Counted from the stretch's first letter, positions 43,566-63,291 are shown. The stretch: DNA of 64,000 bases from Gaiellaceae bacterium (GCA_030446625.1 JAUJMY010000005.1:1-64000), one strand, 5' to 3'. Translations and numbers: made by a program. The notes: generated by a model from the sequence alone, not told the origin.

Positions 43566-44264
43566 ATGAACCTCCGACCCGTGGAGCTGTCTCACTCGCT
43601 GATCCCGGGTCGGGAAGAGCTGCCGCTCACGGTCCGGACGAGGTTCATCGACGACCTCCTGCCGCAGTACACGCGCCCGCCCTCGGAGTGGCACGTGGTC
43701 TCCGAGGTCGCGTTCGTGAGCCACGTCGGCACGCACATGGAGGCGCCGCTCCACTACATCGAAGGTGGGGCGGATACCGCCACGCTCCCACTGTCGGCGC
43801 TCGTCGGACCGGGTTCGGTCATTCGGTTCACGGACAAGGAGGTGGGCGAGCCGATAGACAGGAGTGACCTTTCCGAGCGTGGCGAACACGTCGAGCGGAA
43901 CGACCTCGTGTTCGTCCACACGGGACGAGGCGACCTATACCGCACGCCACACGCGCACGATCGGCCGTTCCTGACCGAGGACGCAGTCCACTGGCTAGTT
44001 GACCGCGAGATCGCGTGCCTCGGCGTCGACTGCTCGGGAATCGAACGGCGAGGGCAGCCGTATCAGCCTAATCACGCGCTGCTCTTTTCCCGCGGGATCC
44101 CTTTGATCGAGCACCTTGTCAACCTCGATCGCCTGACGTCCCCCCGGTTCTTCGTGATCGCCGTTCCGCTCCGCGTCGCCGGCCTCGACGCTAGCCCCGT
44201 CTCGGTCGTCGCGCTCGAATTCGCCGAGGGCGAGTCTGATGGGTGCAACGCGACGGGCGGATGA
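43566..44264 (+). CDS. Cyclase/kynurenine formamidase-like metal hydrolase
   Basis: A 232-residue protein of the cyclase family (also called kynurenine formamidase type B). The signature is FVSHVGTHMEAPLHYIEGG, the HxGTHxDxPxH metal motif with glutamate in place of aspartate. Other conserved segments are VELSHSLIPG at the N-terminus and LGVDCSGIE near the C-terminus. Family members hydrolyse amides or lactones, or cyclise polyketides, using Zn2+ or Mn2+. It overlaps the next gene's start by 4 bp (ATGA), supporting co-translation. Confidence 0.85.
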   Translation: MNLRPVELSHSLIPGREELPLTVRTRFIDDLLPQYTRPPSEWHVVSEVAFVSHVGTHMEAPLHYIEGGADTATLPLSALVGPGSVIRFTDKEVGEPIDRSDLSERGEHVERNDLVFVHTGRGDLYRTPHAHDRPFLTEDAVHWLVDREIACLGVDCSGIERRGQPYQPNHALLFSRGIPLIEHLVNLDRLTSPRFFVIAVPLRVAGLDASPVSVVALEFAEGESDGCNATGG

Positions 44265-45256
44265 GGCGGATCCTCCTCACGGGCGGCCTCGGCTTCATCG
44301 GCAGCCACCTTACCCGTCGGCTGCTCGCCGACGGCTTCGAGGTGCGCGTTCTCGACGCTGCGAGGGCCGATGCTCGCCCGTTCTTCGCCGCTCTCGTCGG
44401 AGCCGACGAGGTCGAACTGCGCTGCAGCGACGTACGTACACGTGACGATGTCGCGTCCGCTCTCGACGGCGTTGACTGCGTCGTCCACCTTGCCGCGCAG
44501 ATTGGCGTCAGGCGGTACGTAGCGAACCCGGTCGAGGTCGCCGACGTAATCTACACCGGCACGAAGGTCGTCGCCGAGGAGGCGCTGCGGCGCGAAGTTC
44601 CGCTGTGCTTCGTGAGCAGCAGCGAGATTTACGGCCGGAACCCCGTCGTACCGTGGGACGAGGAGGCGGATCGGGTGACGGGGCCGCCCTCGACGGCACG
44701 CTGGGTCTACTCGACAGCGAAGAGCGTCGCGGAGCATCTCGTGTACGGGCTCGGCGCGCAGGGGCTCGGCTTCTGGATCGTTCGGCCTTTCAATCCATAC
44801 GGCCCAGGTCTCGACCCCGGCGCGTTTATCACCGCCTCGCTCTGGAGGTTGAGACGCGGCCTCCCGGCCCTCCTGCTCGATGGCGGACGGCAGGTTCGGT
44901 GCTTTACATACATCGACGACATCGTCGACGGGATCAGCCGCGCGTTGGCGCGCCCGGACGCACAGGGCGCCGCCTACAACCTCGGCAACGACGCGCCGAC
45001 GACCGTTGCCGAGGCGCTCGAGGTGCTCGCGCGCGAGGTCGGCCGCGCCGGCGTCACCCACGCCCGCCGCGAGGCGTCGCACCTCTTTGGGCGCGGGTAC
45101 GACGAGAGCTCGAGTCGCGTGCCGCGCATTGACCGCGCGAAAGACGCGCTGGGCTGGACGCCGGCGACGATCTTCGCGGACGGTGTGCGGGCAACCGTCG
45201 CGTGGGTCGACGACCATGGATGGTGGTTCGACGAGACCGCGGTGGCGGCGCGGTAG
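44261..45256 (+). CDS. NAD-dependent epimerase/dehydratase (extended SDR)
   Basis: 331 residues from the ATG at 44261. The NAD-binding motif is LLTGGLGFIGSHLTRRLL (GxxGxxG), the catalytic pair is in WVYSTAKSVAE (YxxxK), and the substrate region includes RPFNPYGPG. The C-terminal half reads FTYIDDIVDGISRAL and NLGNDAPTTVAEAL, as in nucleotide-sugar epimerases/dehydratases (UDP-glucose 4-epimerase, dTDP-glucose dehydratase). It probably alters an activated sugar. It is coupled to the upstream cyclase gene. Specific substrate not determined. Confidence 0.9.
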   Translation: MRRILLTGGLGFIGSHLTRRLLADGFEVRVLDAARADARPFFAALVGADEVELRCSDVRTRDDVASALDGVDCVVHLAAQIGVRRYVANPVEVADVIYTGTKVVAEEALRREVPLCFVSSSEIYGRNPVVPWDEEADRVTGPPSTARWVYSTAKSVAEHLVYGLGAQGLGFWIVRPFNPYGPGLDPGAFITASLWRLRRGLPALLLDGGRQVRCFTYIDDIVDGISRALARPDAQGAAYNLGNDAPTTVAEALEVLAREVGRAGVTHARREASHLFGRGYDESSSRVPRIDRAKDALGWTPATIFADGVRATVAWVDDHGWWFDETAVAAR

Positions 45257-46075: not shown

Positions 46076-47593
46076 TTGCCTGCCGAACGCGACACCCTTG
46101 GTGAGATCCGTCGCGAGTTTCTCTGGCGCTTCGCGAAGCGCTGGCCGAGCGCCGACGATCGGCATTGGGCGGCCGCGCGTCTCGAGGAGCTGAAGGAACT
46201 GTCGGTACGCGACATGTCCGAGAGCCTTCTCTACACGTGGAACGAGCTCGTCCCGAACGTGGAGGCGCTCGCGGCCGAGCACAGCGTCCTCGAGCCGCTC
46301 GCCGAAGCGCTTGCGGCGTCGGCTGCGCCGCTCGCCGCGACGAACGCGCGGACGCTCCGCGCTCAGGACGAGATGCTCGACGCGCTCGGTGCCGCCGATG
46401 TGTGGCCGTTGGTGATCAAGGGTGCAGCGATGCGCGCGTTCTCGCGGTACCCCCAGGCGATGAACGACCTCGATCTCGTCACGCGCGACCTCGACCAGAC
46501 CTGGGAGGTCCTGGACGTCGCGACGCAACTGGGCTACCCGCTAGGGCGGATCAAGGTCGTCCGCCTCGCCGCGCGCGTTCGGGGCGTTGTCCGCTACCAC
46601 GGCTACACGAACCTCTACCGGCGTGACGGCGGCGGGACCGCCGTGCAGGGCGATTGGGATCTCGGCCGTGTTCGCACGCTCGACCTCCACATCGCCCGGT
46701 TCTACGGCTGTGGCGACGCCGTTCTCGCAACTGACCTGTTCGCGCGCGCTGCCCGGAAGCCGGTGGCAGGGCGGCCGGCGCTTCTCCCGAGCCCCGAAGA
46801 CATGGTCCTCGTCGAGATTGTGCACATGATCCGCCACGGGACGGTCACGAGCCGCGTTATGAACCGCGTCGCCGAACTCCTCATCGCCGCGCCCGAACTC
46901 GACACCGCCTACGTCGCGGCAGAGGTCAAGCGTAACGACGCGCAGATCGCCGCGTTCGCGATCGTAAGCGCAATTGCGGCGGCGGTCGAGCCGGCGGCGC
47001 CGGCGGCGCAACGTTTGCTGAGTCACCTCCGCGTCCATCAGCGGTGGCGGCGCGCGCTCGCCGCGCACCTGACCCAGCAGCGCTCCGTGGAGAAGTACGG
47101 GGCCGGGAGCTTCCGGTCCGTCGCTGCGCAGGCGACGTACCTATTCGACTCGTACCGGCACCAGTTCGGAGCGGTCGCCCCGGTCGCGAGGACCGGGGCG
47201 GCGTTCGCGCGGATGTTCCGTGACCGTAAGTTCTACCCGCGCGCGTACGAGCGCTGGAGCGAGCGTCGCACGGGGTGGTTGAGCGCGCGGACACCCGCGG
47301 TCATGCTCGTCCGAATTGAGGCCACGGCCTGGCCTATCGCGCTGCTGCGCTCGCCGGCGGAGAACGCCGAACGTGTGGGTCGCGACGCGCTGCTCCTCGA
47401 CCGCGGTCGCAAGACCGAGGCGCTGTTGACGCCGATCGGCACGTTCGTGTCAACCGCGTACGACGGGCGTGTTCCCGCGAACGTCGCTGCCGAAGTCACG
47501 AAGCGCACGAGCGCGCTGCGGGAGCAATCGCCGCAATCAACCCCGGCGCCGGACGTTCCCACGACCGACGCCAAGCCCGCGCGTGTTCAGTAA
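46076..47593 (+). CDS. Nucleotidyltransferase-family protein (NTP_transf_5-like)
   Basis: A 505-residue protein from a TTG start. Residues ~115-145 hold the hallmark WPLVIKGAAMRAFSRYPQAMNDLD (KGaa..r.yp....DiDlLV type), a minimal nucleotidyltransferase motif with Asp pair. Similar large proteins occur in natural-product and polysaccharide clusters, with no established biochemistry. The C-terminal half is helical, with a proline/threonine-rich tail (QSPQSTPAPDVPTTDAKPARV). It may transfer a nucleotide to a sugar or a carrier. The SDR gene begins inside its 3' end. Confidence 0.7.
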   Translation: MPAERDTLGEIRREFLWRFAKRWPSADDRHWAAARLEELKELSVRDMSESLLYTWNELVPNVEALAAEHSVLEPLAEALAASAAPLAATNARTLRAQDEMLDALGAADVWPLVIKGAAMRAFSRYPQAMNDLDLVTRDLDQTWEVLDVATQLGYPLGRIKVVRLAARVRGVVRYHGYTNLYRRDGGGTAVQGDWDLGRVRTLDLHIARFYGCGDAVLATDLFARAARKPVAGRPALLPSPEDMVLVEIVHMIRHGTVTSRVMNRVAELLIAAPELDTAYVAAEVKRNDAQIAAFAIVSAIAAAVEPAAPAAQRLLSHLRVHQRWRRALAAHLTQQRSVEKYGAGSFRSVAAQATYLFDSYRHQFGAVAPVARTGAAFARMFRDRKFYPRAYERWSERRTGWLSARTPAVMLVRIEATAWPIALLRSPAENAERVGRDALLLDRGRKTEALLTPIGTFVSTAYDGRVPANVAAEVTKRTSALREQSPQSTPAPDVPTTDAKPARVQ

Positions 47594-49453: not shown

Positions 49454-50203
49454 ATGGCGAGCGGCGGGATCGAGGCGGTGCTGCTCGACTGGGGGCAGAC
49501 GCTTGCGAGCGGCGTGTGGAACGCCGAGATTCGGCTCGCCGGAACTCGGGTCGGTCTTGAGGCGCTGGCGCGTGACGACCTACCGGCGTCGCAGCAGCTC
49601 ATTGAATACTGGAACGACACGGCGAGGCGAAATGCGCGCGAGACCGAAGACGAGGCGGACCTTGCCGAGATGACGCGCGAAGCGTTCGCCGAGCTGGGGG
49701 CGCCGCTCGACGACGCAGAGCTCGAGACGTACCTCGCGTCGACTCAGCGGTACTGGGACGCGCACCAGTTCGTGCATAGCGAAGCACACGCGTTCCTCGA
49801 CACTCTCCGCGCAAAGGGGCTGAGCCTCGCGATCGTCTCGAACGCGATCACGCCGAAGCGCTTCCTCGACCGGCTGCTCAACGAGCAAGGTCTGCTCGAG
49901 AGGGTCGACGCCGCCGTCTACTCGTGTGAGGTCGGCAAGCGGAAGCCGCATCGGAGCATCTTCGAGCGCGCGCTCGAAGAGATCGCCGCCGAGCCATGCC
50001 GCAGCGTGTTCATTGGCGACAAGCTGTATCAGGACATCGCCGGCGCTCGCGCCGTCGGCATGACAACGATCCTCGCAACGTGGTTTCGCGCCGACGCCAC
50101 GCCGCACCTACCGCGCGCGGATTACACGGTCGCGAGCTTCGCGGAAGCTCTAGCAGTCATAGAGGAGCTCGCCGCACGGACTCACGGCGCCCCCTGCGAA
50201 TAG
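49454..50203 (+). CDS. HAD-superfamily hydrolase
   Basis: 249 residues from the ATG at 49454 (MASGGIEAVLLDWGQTLASG). Motif I reads LDWGQT, with glycine replacing the second aspartate of the canonical DxDxT, so the general-acid residue is missing. Motif II includes LAIVSNAITP, the lysine is in GKRKPHRSIFE, and motif IV is SVFIGDKLYQDIAGAR. The GDKLYQDIAGARAVGMTTI segment is typical of beta-phosphoglucomutase-like HADs. Loss of the second Asp usually lowers phosphatase activity, so a phosphonatase-like or non-classical role is possible. Its 3' end overlaps the convergent tdk gene by 22 bp. Confidence 0.78.
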   Translation: MASGGIEAVLLDWGQTLASGVWNAEIRLAGTRVGLEALARDDLPASQQLIEYWNDTARRNARETEDEADLAEMTREAFAELGAPLDDAELETYLASTQRYWDAHQFVHSEAHAFLDTLRAKGLSLAIVSNAITPKRFLDRLLNEQGLLERVDAAVYSCEVGKRKPHRSIFERALEEIAAEPCRSVFIGDKLYQDIAGARAVGMTTILATWFRADATPHLPRADYTVASFAEALAVIEELAARTHGAPCE

Positions 50204-50757
50204 CACGTCCGGCAGCGCGCCTCGTAGAGCTCCGACGAGCCGACGACGATCGTCGCGTCCGTGTGTGGAGCGGGCCGGCCGTCGACAAGGCGCTGCGTGA
50301 AGCTCGCGGCGTCGCCGCAGTGCTGACACACCGCCTGGAGTTTTTGGACGTGCGCTGCGACGCACAGGAGCTGCGGCATGCAGCCAAACGGCCGCCGCCG
50401 AAAATCGAGGTCGAGTCCGCTGATGATCACGCGTTTCCCGCTGTCCGCGAGGTGCAGAGCGACGTCCACGAGCGCGTCATCGAAGAATTGCGCCTCGTCA
50501 ATCCCGACGACGCTCGAAGTCCGTGCGAGATGCGCGAGCGCCGCAGCGTCATCGACCGGCGTCGCCGGCACCTGCAGTCCTAGATGAGTCGCGACGTGGG
50601 CGCCGTTGCGGCGATCCGTCGACGGCACGACTACGAGTGTCGCAGGTGCGGCGTACCCTGCTTTAGCGACGCGAAGGATCAGCTCGTGCGTCTTACCGCT
50701 GAACATCGGGCCAGTGATGGCCTCGATCCAGCCGCCGCGTCGTGGCGTTGTCAGCAC
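50182..50757 (-). CDS. tdk: Thymidine kinase
   Basis: A 191-residue type II thymidine kinase. The P-loop is GPMFSGKTHELILRV, the Walker B-like motif is VVGIDEAQFFDD, and the lasso zinc site has CQHC and CRTC. It phosphorylates thymidine (and possibly analogues) to the monophosphate with ATP. Its GTG start overlaps the stop of the upstream dikinase-like gene by 7 bp. It ends the five-gene leftward operon, an unusual setting for tdk. Its presence next to dCTP-deaminase-like genes suggests that deoxynucleoside metabolism is part of the cluster. Confidence 0.92.
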   Translation of the reverse strand: MLTTPRRGGWIEAITGPMFSGKTHELILRVAKAGYAAPATLVVVPSTDRRNGAHVATHLGLQVPATPVDDAAALAHLARTSSVVGIDEAQFFDDALVDVALHLADSGKRVIISGLDLDFRRRPFGCMPQLLCVAAHVQKLQAVCQHCGDAASFTQRLVDGRPAPHTDATIVVGSSELYEARCRTCYSQGAP

Positions 50758-52613
50758 TGCGGACCGCCGCGTTCGTGCGGGTGCGACCGCGCGCGGCGTC
50801 CGTCCAGGACGATCAGCCGGCCATCGTCGAGCTCGAGCTCATCGCCGTTGCTGATCGGAACGTCCGAGACAACCGCTGGACACCCGAGCTCGCGGAGCGT
50901 GATCGCGAGGTGGCAGAGCACACTCCCTGCCTCGAACACGAAGCCTTCGGCATCGTCGATGAGCGACGCAAGGATCGCGTACGGGCGTCGCGCGACGACA
51001 ATTGGGCGGCGCGGCGAGGAGCGCACGCGCTCGCTTAGCCGATCTACCACCGCGGCGGCCGCACCTGGGTCGGTCTCGCGAGCGCTCAGCGCGGGAGCAA
51101 TGCTGAGCGGGCGCAACATATCGTCGTCAAGGACGACCGCGGGCCCGCACGCCCAGCCGCGCGACACGACGTACGCGACCGCGGCGCCTGCGCGGGACGG
51201 CGCCGCCGCGACGCTGAAGTCGATGAAGTGCGGCTCGCCGGCCACGACGGCCCATTCCGTCTGGACTCCAGGCGCGACCGCGTTCAGGCGGCGCGTGAAC
51301 GAGCAGATTGTCGGGAGCGCGCCCGCGAGGTCGCGCGGCGCGCCCGCGGCCGCGGCGTCGTCTTCGACAAGCTCGAGGCGCTCCGCAGCCACGACGCCGC
51401 GGTTCAGATCCATCAGACCGGTCTCCGCGAACTCCACGACTGTGCTGCCGTCCGCTAGAACGCGAGCGATTACGCCGTAGCCGGCGACGAAGTCCCGGAT
51501 GATCGCGCCATCGACGTGGTGCGCGCGACTCGCCCTGCCAAACGCGTCGACGAGGAAAGCGACCGCGTCGTCCTTCTTCGTGATCACCTGGCGGACCGTT
51601 GGCGCTACGTCGAGAACGACGTGCTCGTGCGCCGTACTCGCCAGATCCCGCCGAAGAGCTCCGGGATTGTCCGCGAGACCGCTGCCGTTGAACGACAGGA
51701 CGCGTGCCGCGCCTGTCGCGATCCCTACGGCGGCGGCGTGATCGAAGGCCCACTTCCTCTTCGCCACGTAGTGCTCGTAGACACTGGCGCAGTCGCCGAG
51801 CTCGAAGTCGTGCGGAAGAGCATCGCCGTAGAGGGGCGCGACACGGTATTGCGCGCGTGGCGGCACGACGCGATCAACCGTTCGTATCTGGACGACCTGC
51901 AGCGACTGCTCCCACAGCCACTCCACCTCCACGGGCACTCCGCGGCGAGCGGCAATCAGGGTCGCTGCCGCCTCCGCCTCCGCCACCGCGTCGGCGGCGA
52001 GCGTGGTGGCCGGGTCGAGAACAGTCGTCCGTCGCCCGGCGCCATCCGCGAGCGTGACGCCGCGCCGCGTCGGTTGAACCGCGTCCTGGATCATCACCGC
52101 GAGCGCCGGGTGCGGCGACCAGTCGCCCGAACGCATCCGCGCCGCCAGTGCCTGCGGTGCGAAGGCGCCGCGCCAACACGCGACGACGGCTGCCGCGACC
52201 TCACCCGGAGTCGAGGCACCGGCAGTGGTCGCGTACGCTCCGGCGTCCAGCGACCGTACGGAGTCGTCGCTCGCTGGCGACGAGCGGACGACATAGCCCG
52301 CGGGTGACGCCGCGCGCGACTGCAACGCGTCGTCGAGCTCCCGCCGCTGCTCGTCGAGCAGCACGAGGCCATCGAGAATTGCATCGATCCGCGGGGTAGC
52401 CGCGAGCAACCCGCACCCCAGCGTCGCCTTCAGCTCGAGCATGACCTGCGCCAGCCATCCGAGTCGATCGTCGCCGAGGCTGCGCGCGAGCCACGCCGTA
52501 GGAGCACAGCACGCCCACGGCACGGGCACCTCGGCGGCCGCTTCGGCCAAGCGCGCGAACTTTACTCCGACGAGGTCGGCCCCGGCCGACGCGTCCAGCC
52601 CGACGAGCGTCAT
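50751..52613 (-). CDS. PEP synthase-like dikinase with phosphohistidine swivel domain
   Basis: A 620-residue protein related to pyruvate phosphate dikinase, PEP synthase and rifampicin phosphotransferase. The N-terminal ATP-grasp keeps VGVKFARLAEAA (GGK-like lysine), VVRSSPASDDS (RSS) and VEVEWLWEQSLQVVQIRTVD (EWA...QaR), so ATP binding is plausible. A middle region (about 265-540) is not recognised and would correspond to the substrate domain. The C-terminal swivel domain is FEAGSVLCHLAITLRELGCPAVV with phosphohistidine H568. A PEP/pyruvate-binding TIM barrel is absent. The start overlaps the upstream Dcd-like gene (ATGA). A phosphotransferase acting through phospho-His is the likely role; the acceptor is unknown. 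Confidence 0.75.
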   Translation of the reverse strand: MTLVGLDASAGADLVGVKFARLAEAAAEVPVPWACCAPTAWLARSLGDDRLGWLAQVMLELKATLGCGLLAATPRIDAILDGLVLLDEQRRELDDALQSRAASPAGYVVRSSPASDDSVRSLDAGAYATTAGASTPGEVAAAVVACWRGAFAPQALAARMRSGDWSPHPALAVMIQDAVQPTRRGVTLADGAGRRTTVLDPATTLAADAVAEAEAAATLIAARRGVPVEVEWLWEQSLQVVQIRTVDRVVPPRAQYRVAPLYGDALPHDFELGDCASVYEHYVAKRKWAFDHAAAVGIATGAARVLSFNGSGLADNPGALRRDLASTAHEHVVLDVAPTVRQVITKKDDAVAFLVDAFGRASRAHHVDGAIIRDFVAGYGVIARVLADGSTVVEFAETGLMDLNRGVVAAERLELVEDDAAAAGAPRDLAGALPTICSFTRRLNAVAPGVQTEWAVVAGEPHFIDFSVAAAPSRAGAAVAYVVSRGWACGPAVVLDDDMLRPLSIAPALSARETDPGAAAAVVDRLSERVRSSPRRPIVVARRPYAILASLIDDAEGFVFEAGSVLCHLAITLRELGCPAVVSDVPISNGDELELDDGRLIVLDGRRARSHPHERGGPQC

Positions 52614-53146
52614 ACCGCTGTGCGTTCTGCGAGAAAGTCGCGGTAGATCAGCGTGCTCTGGGGCCCGCGTGAGCCTTGGTACTTCCCGTCGTAGAGCTCG
52701 ATGTCGCCCTTAGGTGTCCACCACATGATCTGCCCGATCTTCATCCCGGGGTAGATCCGGAGGCGGTGGATGCTGAACAGCTGCAGCGTCCACTGCCCGA
52801 TGAAGCCAATGTCCCCGAGCGAGGCGGAGAGGTTGATGAACAGTCCGAGCCGGGCGACAGACGAACGCGCGGCGAACGTCGGCGCGTAGTGGGTGCTGCC
52901 CATCACCTCGAGCGTGCTCGCGAGGTAAAGACGGTGCTGCTCGAGCACGAATCCCTTCGGGCCTATCTCGATCTCCCGGAACGCGTTCTCGCGCTTCACG
53001 TCGAGCGGCGATCCCGAATACACGCGGAGCGTGTTCCCGAGGCGGAAGTTGTAGCTGTTGGGGTTGAGCTGCGACTCGTCGAACGGATCGAGGACGATTC
53101 TCCCGCGCTTCCATTCATCGTGGATCGCCGCGCTCGTCAGGATCAT
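52610..53146 (-). CDS. dCTP deaminase-like protein, copy 2 (catalytic Glu replaced)
   Basis: 178 residues from the ATG at 53146. It has the dCTP-deaminase/dUTPase trimer fold signatures: NPNSYNFRLGN, ARSSVARLGLF and YPGMKIGQI, and the C-terminal KYQGSRGPQS. Gapless alignment by eye to E. coli Dcd gives R94, S95, R99 and D112 at the positions of R110, S111, R115 and D128, but Q122 at the catalytic Glu138 and L110 at Arg126. Deamination by this subunit alone therefore looks unlikely. It may bind dNTPs or complete a heterotrimer with the adjacent paralogue. Start and stop overlap both neighbours. Confidence 0.8.
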   Translation of the reverse strand: MILTSAAIHDEWKRGRIVLDPFDESQLNPNSYNFRLGNTLRVYSGSPLDVKRENAFREIEIGPKGFVLEQHRLYLASTLEVMGSTHYAPTFAARSSVARLGLFINLSASLGDIGFIGQWTLQLFSIHRLRIYPGMKIGQIMWWTPKGDIELYDGKYQGSRGPQSTLIYRDFLAERTAV

Positions 53147-53679
53147 CGCGAACTCGTCCTGCTCCACAGCTCGAGGGAAAGTTTTGACGGCGTTACGCCG
53201 GTCGAGCTGGCGTACTTGCCGCCGTACGGGAGCACGTCGCCGCGCGGCAGCCAGAACGCGATCTTCCCGATCAGCATGCCGCCGTAAATGATCGTCGGCT
53301 GCGTCACCATGACCTCGAGCGTCCACGGGATGATCGCGCCGGTGTGACCGAGCGGCGCGCTGAACTGGATCCAGATCCCGGCAGTAGCTGTGGACCGACG
53401 CGCGTACAGCGTCGCGGCGTAATCCGTGCTGCCGATCGTCTCTGCTGTGCTGCCAAGGTACAGCCTGCCGGGCTCGAGGCAGAGGCCATCAGTCGGAATC
53501 TCTACGCGATCGCAATCGACGCCTTGCGCCGCGTCAAGCTCGCGGTGACGCGGCACTAGGAGCTCAGGCCCGAGGCGGAAGGCGTAGCTGTTCGGCTCGA
53601 TCTGCTCGCGCCGGAACGGCGAGATCGTGATCCTCCCGGCCTGCACCTCGCGCTCGATCGTGGGGCCGGTAGCGATCAC
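53143..53679 (-). CDS. dCTP deaminase-like protein, copy 1 (phosphate-site residues replaced)
   Basis: 178 residues from the GTG at 53679, exactly the same length as copy 2 and alignable with it without gaps. EPNSYAFRLGPEL, IYGGMLIGKIAFW and KYASSTGVTPSKL mark the family. The catalytic glutamate is retained (E122 in WTLEVMV), but the RSSxAR motif reads RRSTAT: Ser111 is Arg95, Arg115 is Thr99, and Asp128 is His112. The pattern of losses is complementary to copy 2. Because dCTP deaminases form trimers with active sites at subunit interfaces, an obligate hetero-oligomer is an attractive inference. Confidence 0.8.
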   Translation of the reverse strand: MIATGPTIEREVQAGRITISPFRREQIEPNSYAFRLGPELLVPRHRELDAAQGVDCDRVEIPTDGLCLEPGRLYLGSTAETIGSTDYAATLYARRSTATAGIWIQFSAPLGHTGAIIPWTLEVMVTQPTIIYGGMLIGKIAFWLPRGDVLPYGGKYASSTGVTPSKLSLELWSRTSSR

Positions 53680-54281
53680 AGGAGCCGGTCGAGAACCCCG
53701 GCGAGTGACGACTCGAGGTGCGTGCGGTCGTTGATGGAGTTGTCGACAACGTGGTCGGGCGCGATCGCGTCGAGCTCCACCGTCGTCGCCGACTCGACGA
53801 CGGTGGAAAGGTCGCCGCGGCCGGCGAGCCGTCGCCGCCGGACGTCCTCGGCACACACGAGGCGGACGAAACGGAAGCCGTCCCGCTGGAGGACCGGGTA
53901 GTCGACGTATGGATCGCGCAGATCGTCGTTCACCACGACGTCGGCCGTCGCTTCGTCGAGCCGTCGCAGGAAATCATCGACAAGGCTGGTCGGCGACAGA
54001 CGCCGAAGCTCACGGGCGATTACCTCCAAAAGCGCCTGGTCCTGAGCGCCGCCGTCCGCCAAACCCGCCGCCGCATAGAACGCGTGCTGGAGCCGGTAGA
54101 GTGGCTCCGCCAGCTTCACTATCTCGACGGTCAGCCCGCGCTTGCGCGCGAGCTCGCACAGGATCGCCGCCGAGGTGCTCTTCCCGCAGCCGGTGAAGCC
54201 ATAGAGGACGATCCGCGCACGCCAGCCGGCCCGCGCACGGACAGGACGAATTTGGGAGGACTCGACGTCGGCGCCGGCCAT
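53676..54281 (-). CDS. P-loop nucleoside/nucleotide kinase-like protein
   Basis: 201 residues from the ATG at 54281 (MAGADVESSQ). The Walker A motif is LYGFTGCGKSTSAAILCELA (residues 26-45). The remainder has VNDDLRDPYVDYPVLQRDGF (Walker B-like acidic residues) and VRLVCAEDVRRRRLAGRGD (LID-like), then a C-terminal VVDNSINDRTHLESSLAG. This is similar to deoxynucleotide monophosphate kinases and dephospho-CoA kinase-like enzymes. It heads the five-gene leftward operon, with its stop overlapping the next start (GTGA). It probably phosphorylates a nucleotide used or made by the following gene products. Confidence 0.75.
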   Translation of the reverse strand: MAGADVESSQIRPVRARAGWRARIVLYGFTGCGKSTSAAILCELARKRGLTVEIVKLAEPLYRLQHAFYAAAGLADGGAQDQALLEVIARELRRLSPTSLVDDFLRRLDEATADVVVNDDLRDPYVDYPVLQRDGFRFVRLVCAEDVRRRRLAGRGDLSTVVESATTVELDAIAPDHVVDNSINDRTHLESSLAGVLDRLL

Positions 54282-54375: not shown

Positions 54376-55437
54376 TCACCCGTCTCGTCCCGTCCAACCC
54401 TCGGCCGCAGAGCGCGCGGCGATGTCGGCGGCGGCCAGGCGCCCCGCTGCAGCTCTCGCCTGATGCCAGTATGGGTAAGGGAGAGCGTCCGCGCTGGCGT
54501 CGTCCAGGCGGCGCCGGTCGGCGTCGCCAAGCTCGAGTGTTGCCGCCGCAAGATTCGTCGTCAGCTGATCTTCGGTACGCGCGCCGACGAGCGCGGAAAC
54601 GACGCCCGGGCGCCCCAGGAGCCACGCGAGCGCCACCTCGGCAGGAGCGCGACCGCAACTCGCCGCGATCGATCTAAGCACGTCAACGATCCGACGGTGC
54701 CGCTCTTGGTCGTGGACCGGTGGCAGCGGCCACGTCCGCGTGAGCGGTGCCGTCTTCTCGTTGTCGCGACACTTCCCGGTGAGGAGACCGCCCGCGAGGG
54801 GGCTCCAGACGATCGCGCCGACACCGTGGTCGAGCGCGGCGGGAATGAGTTCGTGCTCGGCTTCGCGCGCGAGGAGCGTGTAGTGGATCTGCTGGCTCAC
54901 AAACGGCTGGTACCGCCACTCACGCGCGACCGCGAGCGCCTTCGTCAGGTGCCACGCCGAATAGTTCGAGCAGCCAACGTAACGCACCTTGCCCGCGCGC
55001 ACGAGGCCGTCGAGCGTCGATAGCGTCTCCTCGAGCGGCGTTTGCCCGTCCCACGCGTGCGTCTGCAGCAGGTCGATGTGATCCGTCCCCAGCCTCTGCA
55101 GGCTCGCCTCGCACGCGCGGACCAGGTAGTGCCGCGATAATCCCTCGTCGTTAGGCCCGTCCCCCATTGGCATCCGCACCTTCGTCGCAAGGACGACCCG
55201 GTCGCGCCGGTGCCGGATAATCGTCCCGACGAGCTCCTCGGAGTGTCCGCGCGAGTACACGTCGGCGGTGTCGACGAGATTCACCCCGAGGTCGAGGGCA
55301 ATGTCGAGGTGGCGCTGCGCGGCGTGGACGTCGAGGACGCCGGCCTGCTCGTACTTCCCGCGGCTGCCGAAGTTCATCGTCCCGAGTCCGAGTACCGAAA
55401 CCTTCAGCCCCGATTGCCCGAGCAGGCGGTACTTCAT
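54376..55437 (-). CDS. Aldo/keto reductase
   Basis: 353 residues from the ATG at 55437, preceded by TATCCT at 6 nt (leaderless pattern). It is a TIM-barrel NAD(P)H reductase: VLGLGTMNFG, NLVDTADVYSRGHSEE (catalytic Asp and Tyr), VLATKVRMPMGD (Lys), and LLQTHAWDG (His position). The second half contains GAIVWSPLAGGLLTGK and the cofactor segment VSALVGARTEDQLTTNL. It is of the potassium-channel-beta/YghZ subgroup, often found in sugar and natural-product pathways. It is 94 bp upstream of the five-gene operon on the same strand. Confidence 0.93.
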   Translation of the reverse strand: MKYRLLGQSGLKVSVLGLGTMNFGSRGKYEQAGVLDVHAAQRHLDIALDLGVNLVDTADVYSRGHSEELVGTIIRHRRDRVVLATKVRMPMGDGPNDEGLSRHYLVRACEASLQRLGTDHIDLLQTHAWDGQTPLEETLSTLDGLVRAGKVRYVGCSNYSAWHLTKALAVAREWRYQPFVSQQIHYTLLAREAEHELIPAALDHGVGAIVWSPLAGGLLTGKCRDNEKTAPLTRTWPLPPVHDQERHRRIVDVLRSIAASCGRAPAEVALAWLLGRPGVVSALVGARTEDQLTTNLAAATLELGDADRRRLDDASADALPYPYWHQARAAAGRLAAADIAARSAAEGWTGRDG

Positions 55438-55907
55438 GTCGCGAGGATAGTGAGCGCACGCCACGCGTGCTCGCACCCGTTCCGACCGTACACACGTCAA
55501 CGTTCGCCTCGCCGCCGGAGCCGGTGACGAACGGCGACGCGACACGCGGTCGCGGACGCATGCTTTCCGGGGCTATTGCTCGTGCACGCCGCACGTCTGT
55601 CGCCTGTCACTCGCGGACCTCGCGGCTCGTAGGTGTCTGGCGGCGGCGGCGACCCGCTTCCCATTACGGCTGCTACTTCGCATCCGCGGATGGTCGCCGC
55701 CGGGGCGACCCGCCGCGGCACGCACGTTTTCGGCCGCTCCACATGGCGCCGCCGAGACTGCGCTCTGAGCCGGAGCGGCTTGCACGCCGCGTGCTTATGG
55801 CACTCGCACTCGCTACCAGCAGCCTTCAGGAAGTCCACCAAAGCGGCCTGTCCGAACCGCGTCTCGCGACGCATACAGGCTCCGGAGGCGCGTGCCACAA
55901 TCGCTCC
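55438..55907. promoter_or_regulatory. Divergent intergenic region (470 bp)
   Basis: It separates the leftward reductase/nucleotide operon from the rightward MFS gene. Its 55444-55449 AGGATA (TATCCT on the minus strand) is the putative leaderless -10 of the reductase. No ORF with coding character and no clear operator palindrome is seen in the rest. It is the longest intergenic region within the cluster and a natural place for cluster regulation. Confidence 0.4.
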
Positions 55908-58066: not shown

Positions 58067-58882
58067 ATGATCCACGAACGCCCCGAGGTCGCTTGGCTTG
58101 GCCACCCCGTCACGCTCGACGTCAGCTACGCGGGCGGGAAGGGCGCGGCGCTCGCCGCAATGACGTCGTGGGGCTACACCGTGCCCGCAGGCTTCGTCGT
58201 CGCGGCGTCGGCGCTGGAGCACCGCGTCGACGCGCCGCGTCTCCGCGAACTCGTTCGCTCGGGCGACCATGAGGCGGCGATGACAGTCGTTCGCGCGGCC
58301 GAACCGCCGCACGCCGCGGCCCTGGCGTACGAGCAGCTGGGCGGCGCCGTGGCGGTGCGGTCGTCTGCGCGTGCCGAGGACTCCGCGGCGGCGAGCTTCG
58401 CGGGCCGCCACGACACGTATCTGAACGTCGAGGGCACGGGCGCCGTGATGAGCTGCATCGCCGAGTGCTGGGCGTCGTTCTTCTCGCCGCGCGCACTGTC
58501 GTACCGTGCGCGGCAAGGTCTCGTCGACGATCTCGGGATTGGCGTCGTCGTGCAGGCGATGGTCGAGCCGACGACATCCGGAGTGCTGTTCACTGTCGAC
58601 CCCGCGGGAGGGCGTCGCGACCGGATGATCGTCGAAGCCGTGCTCGGGCCGCTCGACGCGCTCGTCTCGGGCCGTGCCGCTCCCGCGCGCTACGTGATCG
58701 CGCGAGACGGGACCGTCGAGGAGCCGGCATGCGACCCGCTCCTCGGCGAACCCGTGCTGCGGCGGCTCGCCAAGCTTGGGTGCGACCTTGAGGGCCGGCT
58801 CGGAGGCCCGCAGGACGTGGAGTGGGCGCTGGCCGGAGACCGACTGCACGTCCTTCAATCGCGCGCCGTGACGACGTCGTAG
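58067..58882 (+). CDS. Stand-alone PEP synthase/PPDK N-terminal (ATP-grasp) protein
   Basis: 271 residues from the ATG at 58067. All visible motifs belong to the ATP-grasp domain of PEP synthase/pyruvate phosphate dikinase: SYAGGKGAALAAM, VPAGFVV, AVAVRSSARAEDSAAASFAG (RSSAxxED), VVQAMVEPTTSGVLFTVDP, and QDVEWALAGDRLHVLQSRAV. There is no phosphohistidine swivel or PEP-binding barrel, so the protein alone could not finish a dikinase cycle. Its natural partner might be the swivel-containing protein at 50751, also in the cluster. Its 3' end overlaps the convergent NRPS gene by 28 bp. Confidence 0.87.
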   Translation: MIHERPEVAWLGHPVTLDVSYAGGKGAALAAMTSWGYTVPAGFVVAASALEHRVDAPRLRELVRSGDHEAAMTVVRAAEPPHAAALAYEQLGGAVAVRSSARAEDSAAASFAGRHDTYLNVEGTGAVMSCIAECWASFFSPRALSYRARQGLVDDLGIGVVVQAMVEPTTSGVLFTVDPAGGRRDRMIVEAVLGPLDALVSGRAAPARYVIARDGTVEEPACDPLLGEPVLRRLAKLGCDLEGRLGGPQDVEWALAGDRLHVLQSRAVTTS

Positions 58883-61800
58883 CTCGGCAGCAGGTCGCTA
58901 ACCCGTGCGTTTGGCTCCCCAGCGCGCGCAGCCGCGGCGGCGACGGTGCGGAGGATCCGCAGCGCGAGCCCGGGCTCGAATCGGTCGGCCTCCGTCACGG
59001 CGCGCAGCGCCACGCCGCCGTCGGGCGCCTCCACCGCCTCGATCGCGATCGTGCCGCGGCTCGGCGGACCGACGCGCACGGGTAGGGCTCGAGACGCGAT
59101 GCGTTTCAGGTCGAGGCGGGGCGCGAACGCGAGCGGCAGGTACGAGAAGACCACGCGCGGTTTCGTTGAATAACCCGTCGCGGCCGCCAGCTCCCGTGCG
59201 ATCAAGCGATGCGGCACCACAGCCAGCGCGAGCGCCTCGGCGAGCTCCACCTGTACGTCTCGTACGACATCGGCGAGAGCGCGTCGTGGATCGGCGCGCC
59301 CGCGCACGAGGACCGTGTCTGCGAGCCAGCCGACGAGTCCCTCAGTCCCCGGCCGCGTCCGGTTTGCGCGCGAAACGACGACAGCGAGCCGGGCGCTGCC
59401 ACTCGCGTCCGCGAGGGCCGCCTGGAGGAGCGTCATCAGTACGACATACGGCGTCGTCGAGCAGCGCCGCGCCAATGCCCGCATTGCGGCCGCGTCGGCA
59501 GCGCCAATTCGAACGGTATCGGAGCGGTGCCGCCGGCTCCGGACCTCGGGCGGCGCGTAAAGCACAGGGAGCGGAACCTCGCCGTGCGGATGGAGATCGC
59601 CCAGGCGGGCGCGCCACGACGCGACTGCGGTCGCCACAGTTTTGGCGTCGCCGGCCGCGCGCTCCCATGCCGCGTAATCCTTGAACTGTCGCGGGGGCGG
59701 CGGTAATCGCGTACCGCGGCGACTACGGGAGGCGCCGTACAGCGCGCCGATTTCCTCGCAGACGATACGGAGCGCGTACGCGTCAGCGGCCATGTGGTCC
59801 GCGACGACACCGACAACGAACGCGGCCGCGTCAATCTGAACGACGATCACGCGTAGCGGCGTCGCGGGCGCGAACGCCTCCCGGCCGAGGCGCTCGACGA
59901 TCCGGACGGCGGCGGCCTCGTTGGGCGCCCGCGCCACCCTCACGTCCGGCGAGTTCACCGGCTCGATCACCTGCTCCCAACCGTGCCCAGACGCGACGAG
60001 CCTCGTCCGCAGCGCCTCGTGTCGCGCGACGACGGCGGCCGCCGCACGCGAAAGCGCGTCGACGTCGAGCGGACCATCGACGGCAAACGCGGCGCCGACG
60101 CCCGTGGGGCGCCGGCTCTGGCTAACCGCCTCCGTGCCGAGACGCTCCTCCTGCCCGAACGACACGGGCCAGCGTGCGCGCGCGTCGGCGCGCGGCAGCG
60201 GCTCTAGGTCAGGAGCGAACGGGAGGCTTTCGCGGCGGAGGAGCTCAACGCGGCGCCGAGCGAGCGCTGCGGCGAGGGCGCTTCCGCTCGCAGCCGAGAG
60301 TACGTCTGGAACCGACACGGCGATGCCGGTCCGTCGGGTGATGTCGGCCGCTACCCGAGCGGCGACGAGCGAGTTCCCGCCGAGCTCGAAGAAGCCCGTT
60401 TTGGCATCGACGGTGCTATCCGGCAGGTGCGTGCGGAAGCTGTCAACTACCGTATCGGCGAGGGCGTGCGTGGGCTCCATCCCCGGGGGAGGAGCGCCGG
60501 CGACGTGACGGAGCGCGCCCCGGTCGATCTTCTTGTTCGGTGTGAGAGGCCACTCGTCGATCGGGACGATCGTCGTCGGGCACATGTACGGGGGCAGGCG
60601 CGAGGCGAGGTAGGCGGCCAGGTCGTCCATGTCGGGCGCGGCCTCGTCGAACTCTACGTACGCGACAAGGCTCGATGCTGCCGCCGTGCTTTCGACGGCC
60701 GCGACGGCCGCCGTCACGCGCGGGTGCTCCCGGCACACCGCTTCGACCTCGCCGAGCTCGATCCGGTACCCGCGGAGTTTGACCTGCGTGTCGGCGCGGC
60801 CGCGGAACTCAACGGCGTCGTCGAGTAGCCGCACCACATCCCCCGTCGCGTACAACCGCGAGCCTGCGCACGTCGCGTCCGCGAACGGGTTCGGCACGAA
60901 GCGTTCGGCCGTCAGCCGCGGTCGATTCACGTACCCGAGTGCAACGCCAGCGCCGCCGATGAAGAGCTCGCCAGTCGCGGCGTCGTCGAAGACGTGCCCG
61001 TCTCCGCCGACCACGTAGACCTGCGTGTTCGCGATTGGCTGCCCCAGCGGTACACGCCCGGACGCGAAATGACCGACGCGGTGCGCGAGAGACCATACGG
61101 TTGTCTCGGTCGGCCCGTAGAGGTTCCAGACGGTGTCGTGCCTTGACCGAAGCCGCTCCGCGAGCTCAGGTGTCAACTCCTCGCCACCAGAGATCGCGCG
61201 GGTCGTGGCCGGGGGGAGGACGTTCGCATCGAGGAGGAGCCTCCACGTCGACGGCGTCGCCTGGACGAGCGTCGCCTGCGCGAGCAGCGTCGCGAACGCA
61301 GGCGTGCCGAGCTCGCTCACGCCGCCGCTCACGAGGCAACAGCCGCCCGTCGCGAGCGGCAGGAGCATCTCAAGGACGGATATGTCAAATGCGAGCGACG
61401 TCAGGAACAAGACGCGGTCCGCTGCGCCGACGTGTAGTAGGTCGCGCATGCTTGCGAGCAGGTTTGCGACGCTGCACCTCGACACCGCTACGCCTTTGGG
61501 CCGCCCGGTCGAGCCGGACGTGTAGATGACGTACGCAACGCCGCCCGGACCGCCGCCGGGGGCAACGGCACGCCGCGCGACGGAAGGTCGCAGCGGCAGC
61601 ACCTTGACGGACGCGGCGTCGGGCTTCCACGGGAGCCCCGCGTCCGAGAGCACAACGCGCGCGCCGGCGTCGTGGACCATGAACGACAGCCGCTCCGCGG
61701 GATAAGTGGGGTCGAGCGGGAGGTAGCACGCGCCTGCGCGGAGCACCCCGAGGACGGCCGCGCAAACGTCGGGCGTCGGCCGCGCGTGGATCCCGACGAC

Positions 61801-63291
61801 GTCTCCCGCCCCGCAGCCGCCGTCCGTGAGCGCGGCTGCGACGGCCTCCGCCCTCGTGGTGACCTCGCCATACGTGACGACCTCGTCTGCCGCGACGAGC
61901 GCAGGGCGCTCGGGGGCGCGAAGCGCGTGCGCTGCAAAAGCGTGCCACGGATCGAGCCGCGCGGCGCGCGCCGGCCCGCGAAGGCCGCGCGCCCCCGTCC
62001 GCCGCCAGCGCGGGGCGGGGAGCTGCGCGAGCGCGCGATCGGGGGCAGTCGCGACGGCTTCCGCGATCTCGACGATGTGGTCCGCGATCGCGTGCGCCCG
62101 CTCTGGGGCGAACGCAGCCGCTCGGTGCTGAAGGCGCACCGCTATCTCGGCCCCGTCGTCACTCGCCTCGAAGAACAGATCGCACTTCGCGCCGCCGTTA
62201 TGGAGCGTCCGGACGGCGGCATCGGCACCGCCGAAACGCACGCGCAGCTGCTCCGGCCGCCGATACGAGAGAACGACCTGGAAGAGCGGCTCCGCGCCCC
62301 GCACGCCGCGCGCGCCGAGACGATCCGCGAGACGCGCAAACGACGCACGGCGCAAGCGGAGCGCGGCGTGCGTGAGGCGCGTGCTCGCGGCAACGGCCTC
62401 GCCGACCGTTTCGGTGGCGTCGAAGCGAAGAAACAGCGGGATGTTGTTCACGAACGGGCCGATGCCGTCGCGCTCCGTCGCGTCGCGCACGTCGACGACG
62501 ACTGTCGTCCCGGATACCGCGTTCCCGTACGAGTGGACCGCGAGTTGCACGGAGGCCGCGAGCAGCGAAAACACGGTGCTGCCGGCCGTCGCCGCGCGCG
62601 CCGCGAGGCTCGAGCGCACGTCACGCGGGATGAGGAAGTCGACTGCTCCGGCAGCACCATCATTCGCTCCGACGCCGCTCGTAGGCAGCCGCAGCGGCGC
62701 CACGCCGGCCGGCAAGAGATCCGCGAGCTGGTCGGCGGCCGCGTCATCGAGGCTAGGGAGAGGCGGAAGCACCGGCGGCGCCGAGTTCTCCGAGTCGGCA
62801 TACGCCGACTCCTGCGAGTCAGCGTATGCCGACGCTAGATCGGCGATGACGACGTCCTGCGAACGCCGGTCGAACACGATGTGGTGTACGACGACGACGG
62901 CGACGTGCCGGTCGGGCGCGACGCGGATCACGAGAGCGCGACTGAGCGGGTCGGCTGTAGGATCGACCGGCTGCGCGGCGAGATCCGCCGCCACCTCGCC
63001 CGCTCTCGCATCAGCGGCCGCTTTTGCTGCGAGGTCGATCTCATCGTACGCACGCGCCGTGTACGGCGTTACAACGAGCCGCGGCAGCGGATGCGTCGCG
63101 TCGATCCGCGCTCGCAGGAGCGCGTGGCGCTCAAGCGTCCGCCGCCAGGCCGCATGGAAGCCGCGCCTGTCAAAGTCGCCCGCCACGTCGAGCGCGAATG
63201 CGAGGTTGTACGCGCGGTCGCCGCCCGGCTGTTGCACCGCCGCCCAGATGGCCTCCTGGATCGGCGACAGCGAGACGCCACGCGCGCTCAT
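58855..63291 (-). CDS. Non-ribosomal peptide synthetase, C-A-T-C
   Basis: A 1,478-residue NRPS. Condensation domain 1 (~5-430) has the active-site HHIVFD (136-141). The adenylation domain (~445-930) has YTSGSTGRPKG (A3), GGEEL, NLYGPTETT (A5), YATGD (A7), GRADTQVKLRGYRIELGEVE (A8) and NKKID with Lys921 (A10). The thiolation domain has LGGNSL with Ser974. Condensation domain 2 (~1035-1478) has DHMAADA (1165-1171), keeping the second His and Asp. Specificity residues by eye are D636, I637, L640, T682, I700, G702, L724, V732, W733 and K921 (DILTIGLVWK), close to the glycine code DILQLGLIWK. There is no thioesterase. The start overlaps the upstream A-T gene (ATGA). Confidence 0.9.
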   Translation of the reverse strand: MSARGVSLSPIQEAIWAAVQQPGGDRAYNLAFALDVAGDFDRRGFHAAWRRTLERHALLRARIDATHPLPRLVVTPYTARAYDEIDLAAKAAADARAGEVAADLAAQPVDPTADPLSRALVIRVAPDRHVAVVVVHHIVFDRRSQDVVIADLASAYADSQESAYADSENSAPPVLPPLPSLDDAAADQLADLLPAGVAPLRLPTSGVGANDGAAGAVDFLIPRDVRSSLAARAATAGSTVFSLLAASVQLAVHSYGNAVSGTTVVVDVRDATERDGIGPFVNNIPLFLRFDATETVGEAVAASTRLTHAALRLRRASFARLADRLGARGVRGAEPLFQVVLSYRRPEQLRVRFGGADAAVRTLHNGGAKCDLFFEASDDGAEIAVRLQHRAAAFAPERAHAIADHIVEIAEAVATAPDRALAQLPAPRWRRTGARGLRGPARAARLDPWHAFAAHALRAPERPALVAADEVVTYGEVTTRAEAVAAALTDGGCGAGDVVGIHARPTPDVCAAVLGVLRAGACYLPLDPTYPAERLSFMVHDAGARVVLSDAGLPWKPDAASVKVLPLRPSVARRAVAPGGGPGGVAYVIYTSGSTGRPKGVAVSRCSVANLLASMRDLLHVGAADRVLFLTSLAFDISVLEMLLPLATGGCCLVSGGVSELGTPAFATLLAQATLVQATPSTWRLLLDANVLPPATTRAISGGEELTPELAERLRSRHDTVWNLYGPTETTVWSLAHRVGHFASGRVPLGQPIANTQVYVVGGDGHVFDDAATGELFIGGAGVALGYVNRPRLTAERFVPNPFADATCAGSRLYATGDVVRLLDDAVEFRGRADTQVKLRGYRIELGEVEAVCREHPRVTAAVAAVESTAAASSLVAYVEFDEAAPDMDDLAAYLASRLPPYMCPTTIVPIDEWPLTPNKKIDRGALRHVAGAPPPGMEPTHALADTVVDSFRTHLPDSTVDAKTGFFELGGNSLVAARVAADITRRTGIAVSVPDVLSAASGSALAAALARRRVELLRRESLPFAPDLEPLPRADARARWPVSFGQEERLGTEAVSQSRRPTGVGAAFAVDGPLDVDALSRAAAAVVARHEALRTRLVASGHGWEQVIEPVNSPDVRVARAPNEAAAVRIVERLGREAFAPATPLRVIVVQIDAAAFVVGVVADHMAADAYALRIVCEEIGALYGASRSRRGTRLPPPPRQFKDYAAWERAAGDAKTVATAVASWRARLGDLHPHGEVPLPVLYAPPEVRSRRHRSDTVRIGAADAAAMRALARRCSTTPYVVLMTLLQAALADASGSARLAVVVSRANRTRPGTEGLVGWLADTVLVRGRADPRRALADVVRDVQVELAEALALAVVPHRLIARELAAATGYSTKPRVVFSYLPLAFAPRLDLKRIASRALPVRVGPPSRGTIAIEAVEAPDGGVALRAVTEADRFEPGLALRILRTVAAAAARAGEPNARVSDLLPSYDVVTARD
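62785..62832. repeat. Tandem 24-bp (8-residue) duplication inside the NRPS C domain
   Basis: Residues 154-161 (SAYADSQE, 62832-62809) and 162-169 (SAYADSEN, 62808-62785) are adjacent copies. The DNA differs at several synonymous positions (GCA/GCG, TAC/TAT, GCT/GCC), so the duplication is not recent. It lies about 12 residues after the catalytic HHxxxD motif. Confidence 0.85.

What the first reader, a model, noticed from the sequence alone, without database searches (positions are those of the whole stretch)
50182..54281. Five-gene coupled nucleotide/phosphotransfer operon of unknown purpose
Every junction in this leftward unit is an overlap (GTGA, ATGA, ATGA, then a 7-bp overlap before tdk): P-loop kinase, two dCTP-deaminase-like proteins, a PEP-synthase-like dikinase with a phosphohistidine domain, and thymidine kinase. 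Tdk, Dcd and dNMP kinase are known individually in nucleotide salvage and phage metabolism; joining them to an ATP/phospho-His dikinase inside an NRPS-containing cluster is not an arrangement I know. It could build or modify a nucleotide precursor of the product, or act as resistance or defence.
Basis: partly seen in the sequence, partly recalled or inferred. Interest (0 to 1): 0.85.

Follow-up and report, generated by a model that had tools for sequence, protein, structure and literature searches.

The report
Phaseolotoxin-like phosphorus–nitrogen biosynthesis operon
The operon is real; four of its five genes form an ancient gene set, shared by many unrelated bacteria and matching the core of the phaseolotoxin gene cluster, that probably builds a rare phosphorus–nitrogen group into a small peptide with a two-part enzyme in which each protein carries half of the active site.

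Summary
In detail: five minus-strand genes with GTGA, ATGA, ATGA and 7-bp overlaps. Four of them (kinase, two DCD-fold proteins, dikinase) form a conserved unit. 29 other loci from actinobacteria, Paenibacillus, alphaproteobacteria and Chloroflexi carry a full-length dikinase of this family with a DCD gene; in 23 of these the second DCD is fused to it. tdk was found at none of them; Nocardia higoensis has the four genes plus four more window genes but no tdk. The arrangement has a published precedent: phtJ-phtK (two 'dCTP deaminases') and phtL (dikinase) of the phaseolotoxin cluster, where PhtL is proposed to make N–P bonds. The two DCDs are complementary, not redundant: at all 87 loci with more than one copy, exactly one copy lacks the catalytic Glu (Gln or Met instead) while keeping the 'GKY' C-terminal lid; the other keeps Glu but not GKYQ. 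In the dikinase clade the Glu-bearing copy has also lost the phosphate-binding Ser/Arg (31/31, against 2/56 elsewhere). Best reading: a P–N-bond precursor module in an NRPS island, with a heteromeric DCD enzyme sharing composite active sites. The reaction, the oligomer and direct homology to Pht proteins are untested. Defence or resistance is not supported.

The parts
53676..54281 (-). P-loop kinase, NMP-kinase fold (201 aa), first gene of the operon
   Evidence: P-loop GFTGCGKST; AlphaFold pLDDT 89.7; Foldseek best phosphomevalonate and adenylate-kinase-like, APS kinase lower; family profile matches 55 other loci at E<1e-30
53143..53679 (-). DCD-A: DCD-fold protein that keeps the catalytic Glu (WTLE) but lacks Ser111/Arg115 (R/T) and the GKYQG lid
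   Evidence: PF22769 2.9e-22; residue comparison; GTGA overlap
52610..53146 (-). DCD-B: DCD-fold protein with Ser111, Arg115 and the GKYQGSRGPQ lid, but Glu138 replaced by Gln (WTLQ)
   Evidence: PF22769 5.4e-35; residue comparison; fused to the dikinase in 23 relatives
50751..52613 (-). Dikinase (620 aa): PPDK_N + middle domain + C-terminal phosphohistidine domain; rifampin-phosphotransferase-like order
   Evidence: Pfam; K18, R110, E231, Q242, R244 and H568 invariant in 14 relatives; AlphaFold pLDDT 83.8, Foldseek best 5hv1. Lacks a ~28-aa segment of the ATP-binding domain that its relatives have
50182..50757 (-). Thymidine kinase (191 aa); translationally overlapping but not part of the recurring set
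   Evidence: PF00265 5e-45, NCBIfam 224.8 bits against cut-off 183; absent from the related loci; second copy at C10:106329
54376..55443 (-). Aldo/keto reductase, next to the operon on the same strand; shared with the Nocardia higoensis cluster
   Evidence: Pfam 1.3e-75; 42.5% identity to L110
46076..47593 (+). NTP_transf_5 nucleotidyltransferase-like protein (505 aa); shared with the Nocardia cluster
   Evidence: PF14907 2.9e-15; 43.8% identity, 326 bits to L110; no other related locus has it
44243..45256 (+). NAD-dependent epimerase/dehydratase; partial homologue in L110
   Evidence: Pfam 3.8e-45; 37% identity over 110 aa in L110
41473..42654 (+). Protein of unknown family (393 aa); shared with the Nocardia cluster
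   Evidence: 39.6% identity to L110 over 311 aa, E 1e-50, sole hit; no Pfam family
58067..58882 (+). Stand-alone PPDK_N (ATP-binding) domain; possible helper of the dikinase (inference)
   Evidence: PF01326 2.4e-52; matches the ATP-domain part of the dikinase profile, 145 bits; also found in the own-genome search
58855..63291 (-). NRPS protein (C-A-T-C); further NRPS proteins, FkbM methyltransferase-TE and a PPTase continue to contig position 79640
   Evidence: Pfam

Best explanation
The operon is the core of a phaseolotoxin-like phosphorus-nitrogen (P-N) biosynthetic module inside an acquired NRPS island. Proposed mechanism: the rifampin-phosphotransferase-like dikinase moves a phosphoryl group from ATP through its histidine to an amine or amide nitrogen of a small precursor (the P-N step; inferred). 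The NMP-kinase-fold kinase and the DCD pair then process a nucleotide-linked form of that group, most likely a cytidine nucleotide because that is the ligand class of the fold (inferred). DCD-A and DCD-B form one hetero-oligomer whose working site lies between them: A supplies the catalytic Glu, B supplies the phosphate-binding Ser/Arg and the lid (complementary losses shown; the complex inferred). The product is passed to the NRPS or to ligase partners. tdk is a local addition.
For: Conservation: a full-length dikinase of this family lies with a DCD gene at 29 other loci; partial N-terminal pieces at L053 and L102; the kinase profile matches 55 loci. 23 DCD-B-dikinase fusions. Same order kinase-A-B-dikinase in L068. 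Complementary residues at 87/87 multi-copy loci; Ser/Arg loss in A at 31/31 dikinase loci against 2/56 others. A is one supported branch, and the dikinase-associated subclades of A and of B mirror each other, with the window nested inside both. Published precedent: phtJ-phtK-phtL, phtS (PMC3927611); phtL deletion abolishes the toxin but not its tripeptide scaffold, and PhtL relatives agnD1/agnD2 occur in the agrocin 84 cluster, another phosphoramidate (PMC4530439); PhtL proposed for N-P bonds (PMC5453526). L097 runs aminotransferase III ... fatty-acid desaturase-DCD-A-DCD-B-dikinase, the published pht order phtF ... desI-J-K-L. DCD/dUTPase active sites lie in intersubunit clefts, and Asp-to-Asn in the dUTPase counterpart abolishes catalysis but not binding (PMC4827122). 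Dikinase fold nearest to rifampin phosphotransferase. NRPS neighbours.
Against: The window lacks the desaturase, HPr-kinase-like, phosphodiesterase and ~420-aa ExExK-protein genes that many relatives carry. The kinase resembles NMP, phosphomevalonate and dephospho-CoA kinases more than APS kinase. The window dikinase has lost part of its ATP-binding domain. 56 multi-copy loci lack a detected dikinase, so the DCD pair has a wider role than this pathway. No heteromer was modelled or measured.
Confidence: 0.6

Rival explanations
1. Nucleotide-tailoring operon: the DCD pair, the kinase and tdk make a modified deoxynucleotide that becomes part of the product, and the dikinase O-phosphorylates an intermediate or a sugar.
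For: TK, kinase and DCD folds are all nucleotide-related; nucleotidyltransferase, epimerase and AKR genes nearby; rifampin phosphotransferase, the nearest fold, O-phosphorylates its substrate (established knowledge).
Against: tdk is absent from the relatives, including the nearest cluster L110; fusion ties DCD-B to the dikinase, not to a nucleoside enzyme; the precedent product, phaseolotoxin, contains no nucleoside (PMC5453526).
Confidence: 0.2
2. The dikinase is a ligase of the PigC/RedH type that activates one precursor by phosphorylation and condenses it with another; the DCDs and kinase recycle nucleotides around it.
For: NCBIfam prodigiosin ligase PigC is the second-best hit, 3e-12.
Against: Far below the cut-off (45 against 1300 bits); phtL deletion leaves the peptide scaffold intact and removes only the phosphorus-containing toxin (PMC4530439).
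Confidence: 0.08
3. Self-resistance or anti-phage defence: antibiotic phosphorylation by the dikinase, or dNTP depletion by the DCDs.
For: Rifampin phosphotransferase is the nearest fold; dNTP-depleting defence systems exist (established knowledge).
Against: No PADLOC match beyond two marginal P-loop hits; DCD-B has lost the catalytic Glu; the genes lie beside NRPS genes and recur with biosynthetic genes.
Confidence: 0.05
4. Ordinary nucleotide salvage, incidentally clustered.
For: All families are known in salvage.
Against: The genome has its own canonical Dcd (C23, best match to PF22769) and another TK; recurrence across phyla.
Confidence: 0.03

Closest known systems
Phaseolotoxin (Pht/argK-tox) cluster, phtJ-phtK-phtL and phtS, Pseudomonas syringae (PMC3927611, PMC4530439)
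   Same: Two DCD-annotated genes in tandem, followed by a PPDK/PEP-synthase-like dikinase; a P-loop kinase gene; an NRPS gene elsewhere in the genome is also required.
   Different: The window has no desaturase, and none of the annotated window genes is an amidinotransferase or L-amino-acid ligase; it has NTP_transf_5, epimerase, AKR, NRPS genes and a tdk instead. Product unknown. Sequence identity to the Pht proteins not measured.
Nocardia higoensis cluster, locus L110 (unannotated here)
   Same: Kinase, DCD-A, DCD-B and dikinase plus AKR, NTP_transf_5, a partial epimerase and the unknown 393-aa protein, 31-64% identical.
   Different: No tdk; the kinase carries a C-terminal extension; gene order differs; no NRPS in the 12 kb held.
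Campylobacter O-methyl phosphoramidate pathway Cj1415-Cj1418 (PMC11800397, PMC6429109)
   Same: Logic: a kinase N-phosphorylates an amide nitrogen, followed by cytidylylated phosphoramidate intermediates and a further kinase.
   Different: A different gene set, with no DCD pair named there; only an analogy, not tested by sequence.
Rifampin phosphotransferase (RPH, PDB 5hv1)
   Same: ATP-binding domain, middle domain, C-terminal phosphohistidine domain; best fold match.
   Different: Shorter (620 against about 870 aa), different middle domain, 38.7 bits against a cut-off of 999; ATP domain truncated.
dCTP deaminase (Dcd), homotrimer
   Same: Fold and most active-site motifs, when the two proteins are taken together.
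   Different: Each protein alone lacks part of the site; neither passes the NCBIfam equivalog cut-off.

Membership tests
Phaseolotoxin-type (Pht) gene cluster | Two tandem DCD-family genes directly followed by a PPDK-like dikinase gene | tested here: met
   compared with the table in PMC3927611
Phaseolotoxin-type (Pht) gene cluster | Direct sequence homology to PhtJ, PhtK and PhtL | not tested
   Pht sequences were not in the loci obtained; 'of' accepts genome handles only
Phaseolotoxin-type (Pht) gene cluster | APS-kinase-like PhtS | tested here: inconclusive
   A kinase is present; APS kinase structures appear only from Foldseek rank 6, below phosphomevalonate and adenylate-kinase-like proteins
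Phaseolotoxin-type (Pht) gene cluster | Fatty-acid desaturase (desI) | tested here: not met
   No tblastn hit in the window or contig 10 to 115 kb
Phaseolotoxin-type (Pht) gene cluster | Amidinotransferase amtA, ligase phtU | tested here: not met
   Not among the Pfam assignments of the 40.5-79.6 kb genes scanned
Phaseolotoxin-type (Pht) gene cluster | Resistant ornithine carbamoyltransferase argK | tested here: inconclusive
   Not among the Pfam assignments of the scanned genes; rest of the genome not searched for it
dCTP deaminase (Dcd) | DCD fold (PF22769) | tested here: met
   both proteins
dCTP deaminase (Dcd) | Catalytic Glu138, Ser111, Arg115 and C-terminal lid in one chain | tested here: not met
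   A lacks Ser111, Arg115 and the GKYQG lid; B lacks Glu138
dCTP deaminase (Dcd) | NCBIfam TIGR02274 cut-off 92.8 bits | tested here: not met
   85.3 and 50.9 bits
Rifampin phosphotransferase / PEP-synthase-like dikinase | PPDK_N plus C-terminal phosphohistidine domain with conserved His | tested here: met
Rifampin phosphotransferase / PEP-synthase-like dikinase | NCBIfam RIF_Ptrans_rph cut-off 999 bits | tested here: not met
   38.7 bits
PEP synthase / PPDK proper | C-terminal PEP/pyruvate-binding barrel domain | tested here: not met
   Only PPDK_N and PEP-utilizers found; the protein ends after the His domain
Anti-phage defence (PADLOC families) | Match to a known defence protein | tested here: not met
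   Only two marginal P-loop hits to the kinase, E 0.016 and 0.034
Thymidine kinase | TK family match over the curated cut-off | tested here: met
   224.8 bits against 183

The most novel reading that the evidence does not exclude
The DCD pair is an obligate hetero-oligomer with shared active sites that catalyses a new nucleotide-dependent step in making P-N or phosphosulfamate groups, and gene clusters of this type across actinobacteria, Paenibacillus, alphaproteobacteria and Chloroflexi encode a large unseen class of such natural products, including perhaps the unknown sulphostin pathway.
Probability: 0.38. Interest if true: 0.82.

Novelty: new variant of a known kind. Interest (0 to 1): 0.64.

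Why it matters
How phaseolotoxin's three N–P bonds form is described as poorly understood (PMC4530439), four natural phosphosulfamates are listed as known (PMC6429109), and nothing was known in 2021 about the biosynthesis of sulphostin (PMC9113183). Comparing 94 loci isolates a small recurring gene set (kinase, DCD-A, DCD-B, dikinase) and gives the annotated 'dCTP deaminase' pair a testable role: one enzyme with complementary half-sites. That turns an open question into a two-protein mixing experiment, and gives a genomic signature for finding related clusters in non-pathogenic bacteria.

Tried and rejected
Dikinase as a direct search query: no relatives in viral or genome contigs and only distant ATP-domain hits in genome relatives; the DCD-A alignment worked instead. 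Phage origin: no phage hit for kinase or dikinase and only distant DCDs at about 30%. Viral-contig scans with either DCD: nothing. Defence: rejected. Housekeeping salvage: rejected. Literature search for DCDs in nucleoside clusters: nothing relevant. The ~420-aa ExExK protein has no PDB relative at E up to 1. Attachment sites for the island: integrase found, but no convincing repeats. Heteromer modelling: the predictor takes single chains only. A low-stringency match of an L067 reading frame to the DCD region of the window was dropped as probably out of frame.

Full report
What is there. Five minus-strand genes lie at 50182-54281 with overlaps GTGA, ATGA, ATGA and 7 bp, exactly as described. 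They are a P-loop kinase, two DCD-fold proteins (here DCD-A, upstream, and DCD-B), a 620-aa dikinase (PPDK_N and PEP-utilizers) and a thymidine kinase. Third-position G+C is about 0.75-0.85 from about 40.5 kb to the end of the window, against about 0.9 upstream of 34 kb. On the contig the lower values continue to about 86 kb, with NRPS genes from 58.9 to 79.6 kb, a PPTase, and a phage-type integrase at 87.3-88.6 kb, so the operon sits in a probable acquired island. Attachment sites were not found.

Is the association real? The dikinase alone finds no close relatives. Searching plasmids with DCD-A and with the kinase gave the first clue: kinase plus two DCDs side by side in Streptomyces, Nonomuraea and Nocardiopsis, and both types present in Embleya and Rhizobium. 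A genome scan with the DCD-A alignment then gave 79 loci. Among these and 14 plasmid loci, a full-length dikinase of this family occurs with a DCD gene at 29 loci and partial pieces at two more; the kinase profile matches 55 loci at E below 1e-30. In 23 of the 29, DCD-B and the dikinase are one open frame; the fusion was checked with Pfam in two. An Acetobacteraceae contig (L068) has the window's order kinase–A–B–dikinase. A Nocardia higoensis contig (L110) shares the four genes and also the AKR, the NTP_transf_5 protein, part of an epimerase and an unknown 393-aa protein, but not tdk.

The two DCDs. Residues were numbered on E. coli Dcd, whose sequence I supplied from memory as a reference; Ser111, Arg115 and Glu138 are its phosphate-binding and catalytic residues (established knowledge). 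At all 87 loci with more than one DCD copy (the window counted), exactly one copy lacks Glu138 (84 Gln, 3 Met) and that copy keeps the C-terminal 'GKY' lid in 87/87; the first Glu-bearing copy has 'GKYQ' in 0/87. In dikinase-associated loci the Glu-bearing copy has also lost Ser111/Arg115 in 31/31, against 2/56 elsewhere (Fisher p 1.5e-21, but loci are related, so this is not a true probability). Single-copy relatives in Paenibacillaceae plasmids and one Patescibacteria contig keep everything. The tree shows A as one supported branch and dikinase-associated subclades of both A and B, with the window nested in each. DCD-family enzymes are trimers with active sites in the intersubunit clefts, and in dUTPase the corresponding Asp-to-Asn change removes catalysis but not binding (PMC4827122). 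The simplest reading is one hetero-oligomer whose functional site joins motif 3 of A with motif 2 and the lid of B. The residue pattern is shown; the complex is inferred.

The dikinase and kinase. Lys18, Arg110, Glu231, Gln242, Arg244 and His568 are invariant in 14 relatives, consistent with an ATP-grasp/phosphohistidine dikinase. The model (pLDDT 83.8) is closest to rifampin phosphotransferase, although whole-chain TM-scores are low because domain positions differ. The window copy lacks about 28 residues of the ATP domain; a separate PPDK_N protein at 58067-58882 might compensate (speculation; a stand-alone ATP-binding subunit, HpeI, appears among the fold matches). The kinase has an NMP-kinase fold with an unassigned substrate.

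What it works like. The phaseolotoxin cluster has phtJ and phtK, both annotated dCTP deaminase, then phtL, a PPDK-like dikinase, and phtS, annotated adenylylsulfate kinase (PMC3927611). Deleting phtL removes the toxin but not its tripeptide, and PhtL is proposed to make N–P bonds (PMC4530439, PMC5453526). One of my loci, L097, runs aminotransferase, three genes, fatty-acid desaturase, DCD-A, DCD-B, dikinase, the same order as published for phtF … desI-J-K-L. The Campylobacter phosphoramidate pathway gives a chemical analogy: amide N-phosphorylation, then cytidine diphosphate intermediates and a kinase (PMC6429109, PMC11800397). I therefore infer a P–N precursor pathway feeding the NRPS product. 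I did not compare sequences with the Pht proteins and do not call the window a phaseolotoxin cluster: desaturase is absent by search, and amidinotransferase and ligase are not among the annotated window genes.

Wider picture. 56 multi-copy loci have no detected dikinase and lie near methyltransferases (20 of 125 neighbours), metallophosphoesterases, zinc deaminases, alanyl-tRNA-synthetase-like proteins, glycosyltransferases and nucleotidyltransferases. The complementary DCD pair is thus older and broader than the P–N pathway.

Verdict. Observation confirmed. Interpretation partly supported: the arrangement is a variant of a known but biochemically unsolved system, four genes rather than five, with a new and testable feature in the complementary DCD pair.

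Noticed in passing
window 58067-58882 (+): Stand-alone PPDK_N ATP-binding domain next to the NRPS gene; could complement the dikinase, whose own ATP domain lacks a segment.
   Followed up: partly
window 40.5 kb to contig position about 88.6 kb (L158, L159): Compositionally distinct island with NRPS genes, an FkbM-methyltransferase/thioesterase module, a PPTase and a phage-type integrase at its right end; no attachment repeats found.
   Followed up: partly
L077, L085, L092, L094, L099, L107, L113, L117, L121, L130, L140, L142 and others: Complementary DCD pairs without a detected dikinase occur in many other groups (Saccharibacteria, Chlamydiae, cyanobacteria, Nitrospirae, Nanoarchaeota, Serratia, Erwinia), near methyltransferases and nucleotide enzymes; function unknown.
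   Followed up: partly
L097:13043-14233, L068:4545-5792, L069:7065-8366, L075:13029-14237 and others: A family of about 420 aa after or near the dikinase, with invariant ExExK and paired K/R/E residues resembling the triphosphate-tunnel (CYTH) signature; no Pfam or PDB match.
   Followed up: partly
L069:8359-9453, L075:8011-9462, L068:1-600: HPr-kinase-like P-loop protein next to the kinase in many relatives; no hit in the window.
   Followed up: partly
L089, L099, L117, L121, L131: A third, more distant Glu-bearing DCD gene directly follows the A/B pair, forming its own branch in the tree.
   Followed up: no
plasmids of Phaeobacter (57 records) and Leisingera (17 records): Partial similarity to the dikinase on roseobacter plasmids; neighbourhood not examined.
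   Followed up: no
window 46076-47593 (+): NTP_transf_5 protein found in only one related cluster (Nocardia higoensis); role unknown.
   Followed up: partly
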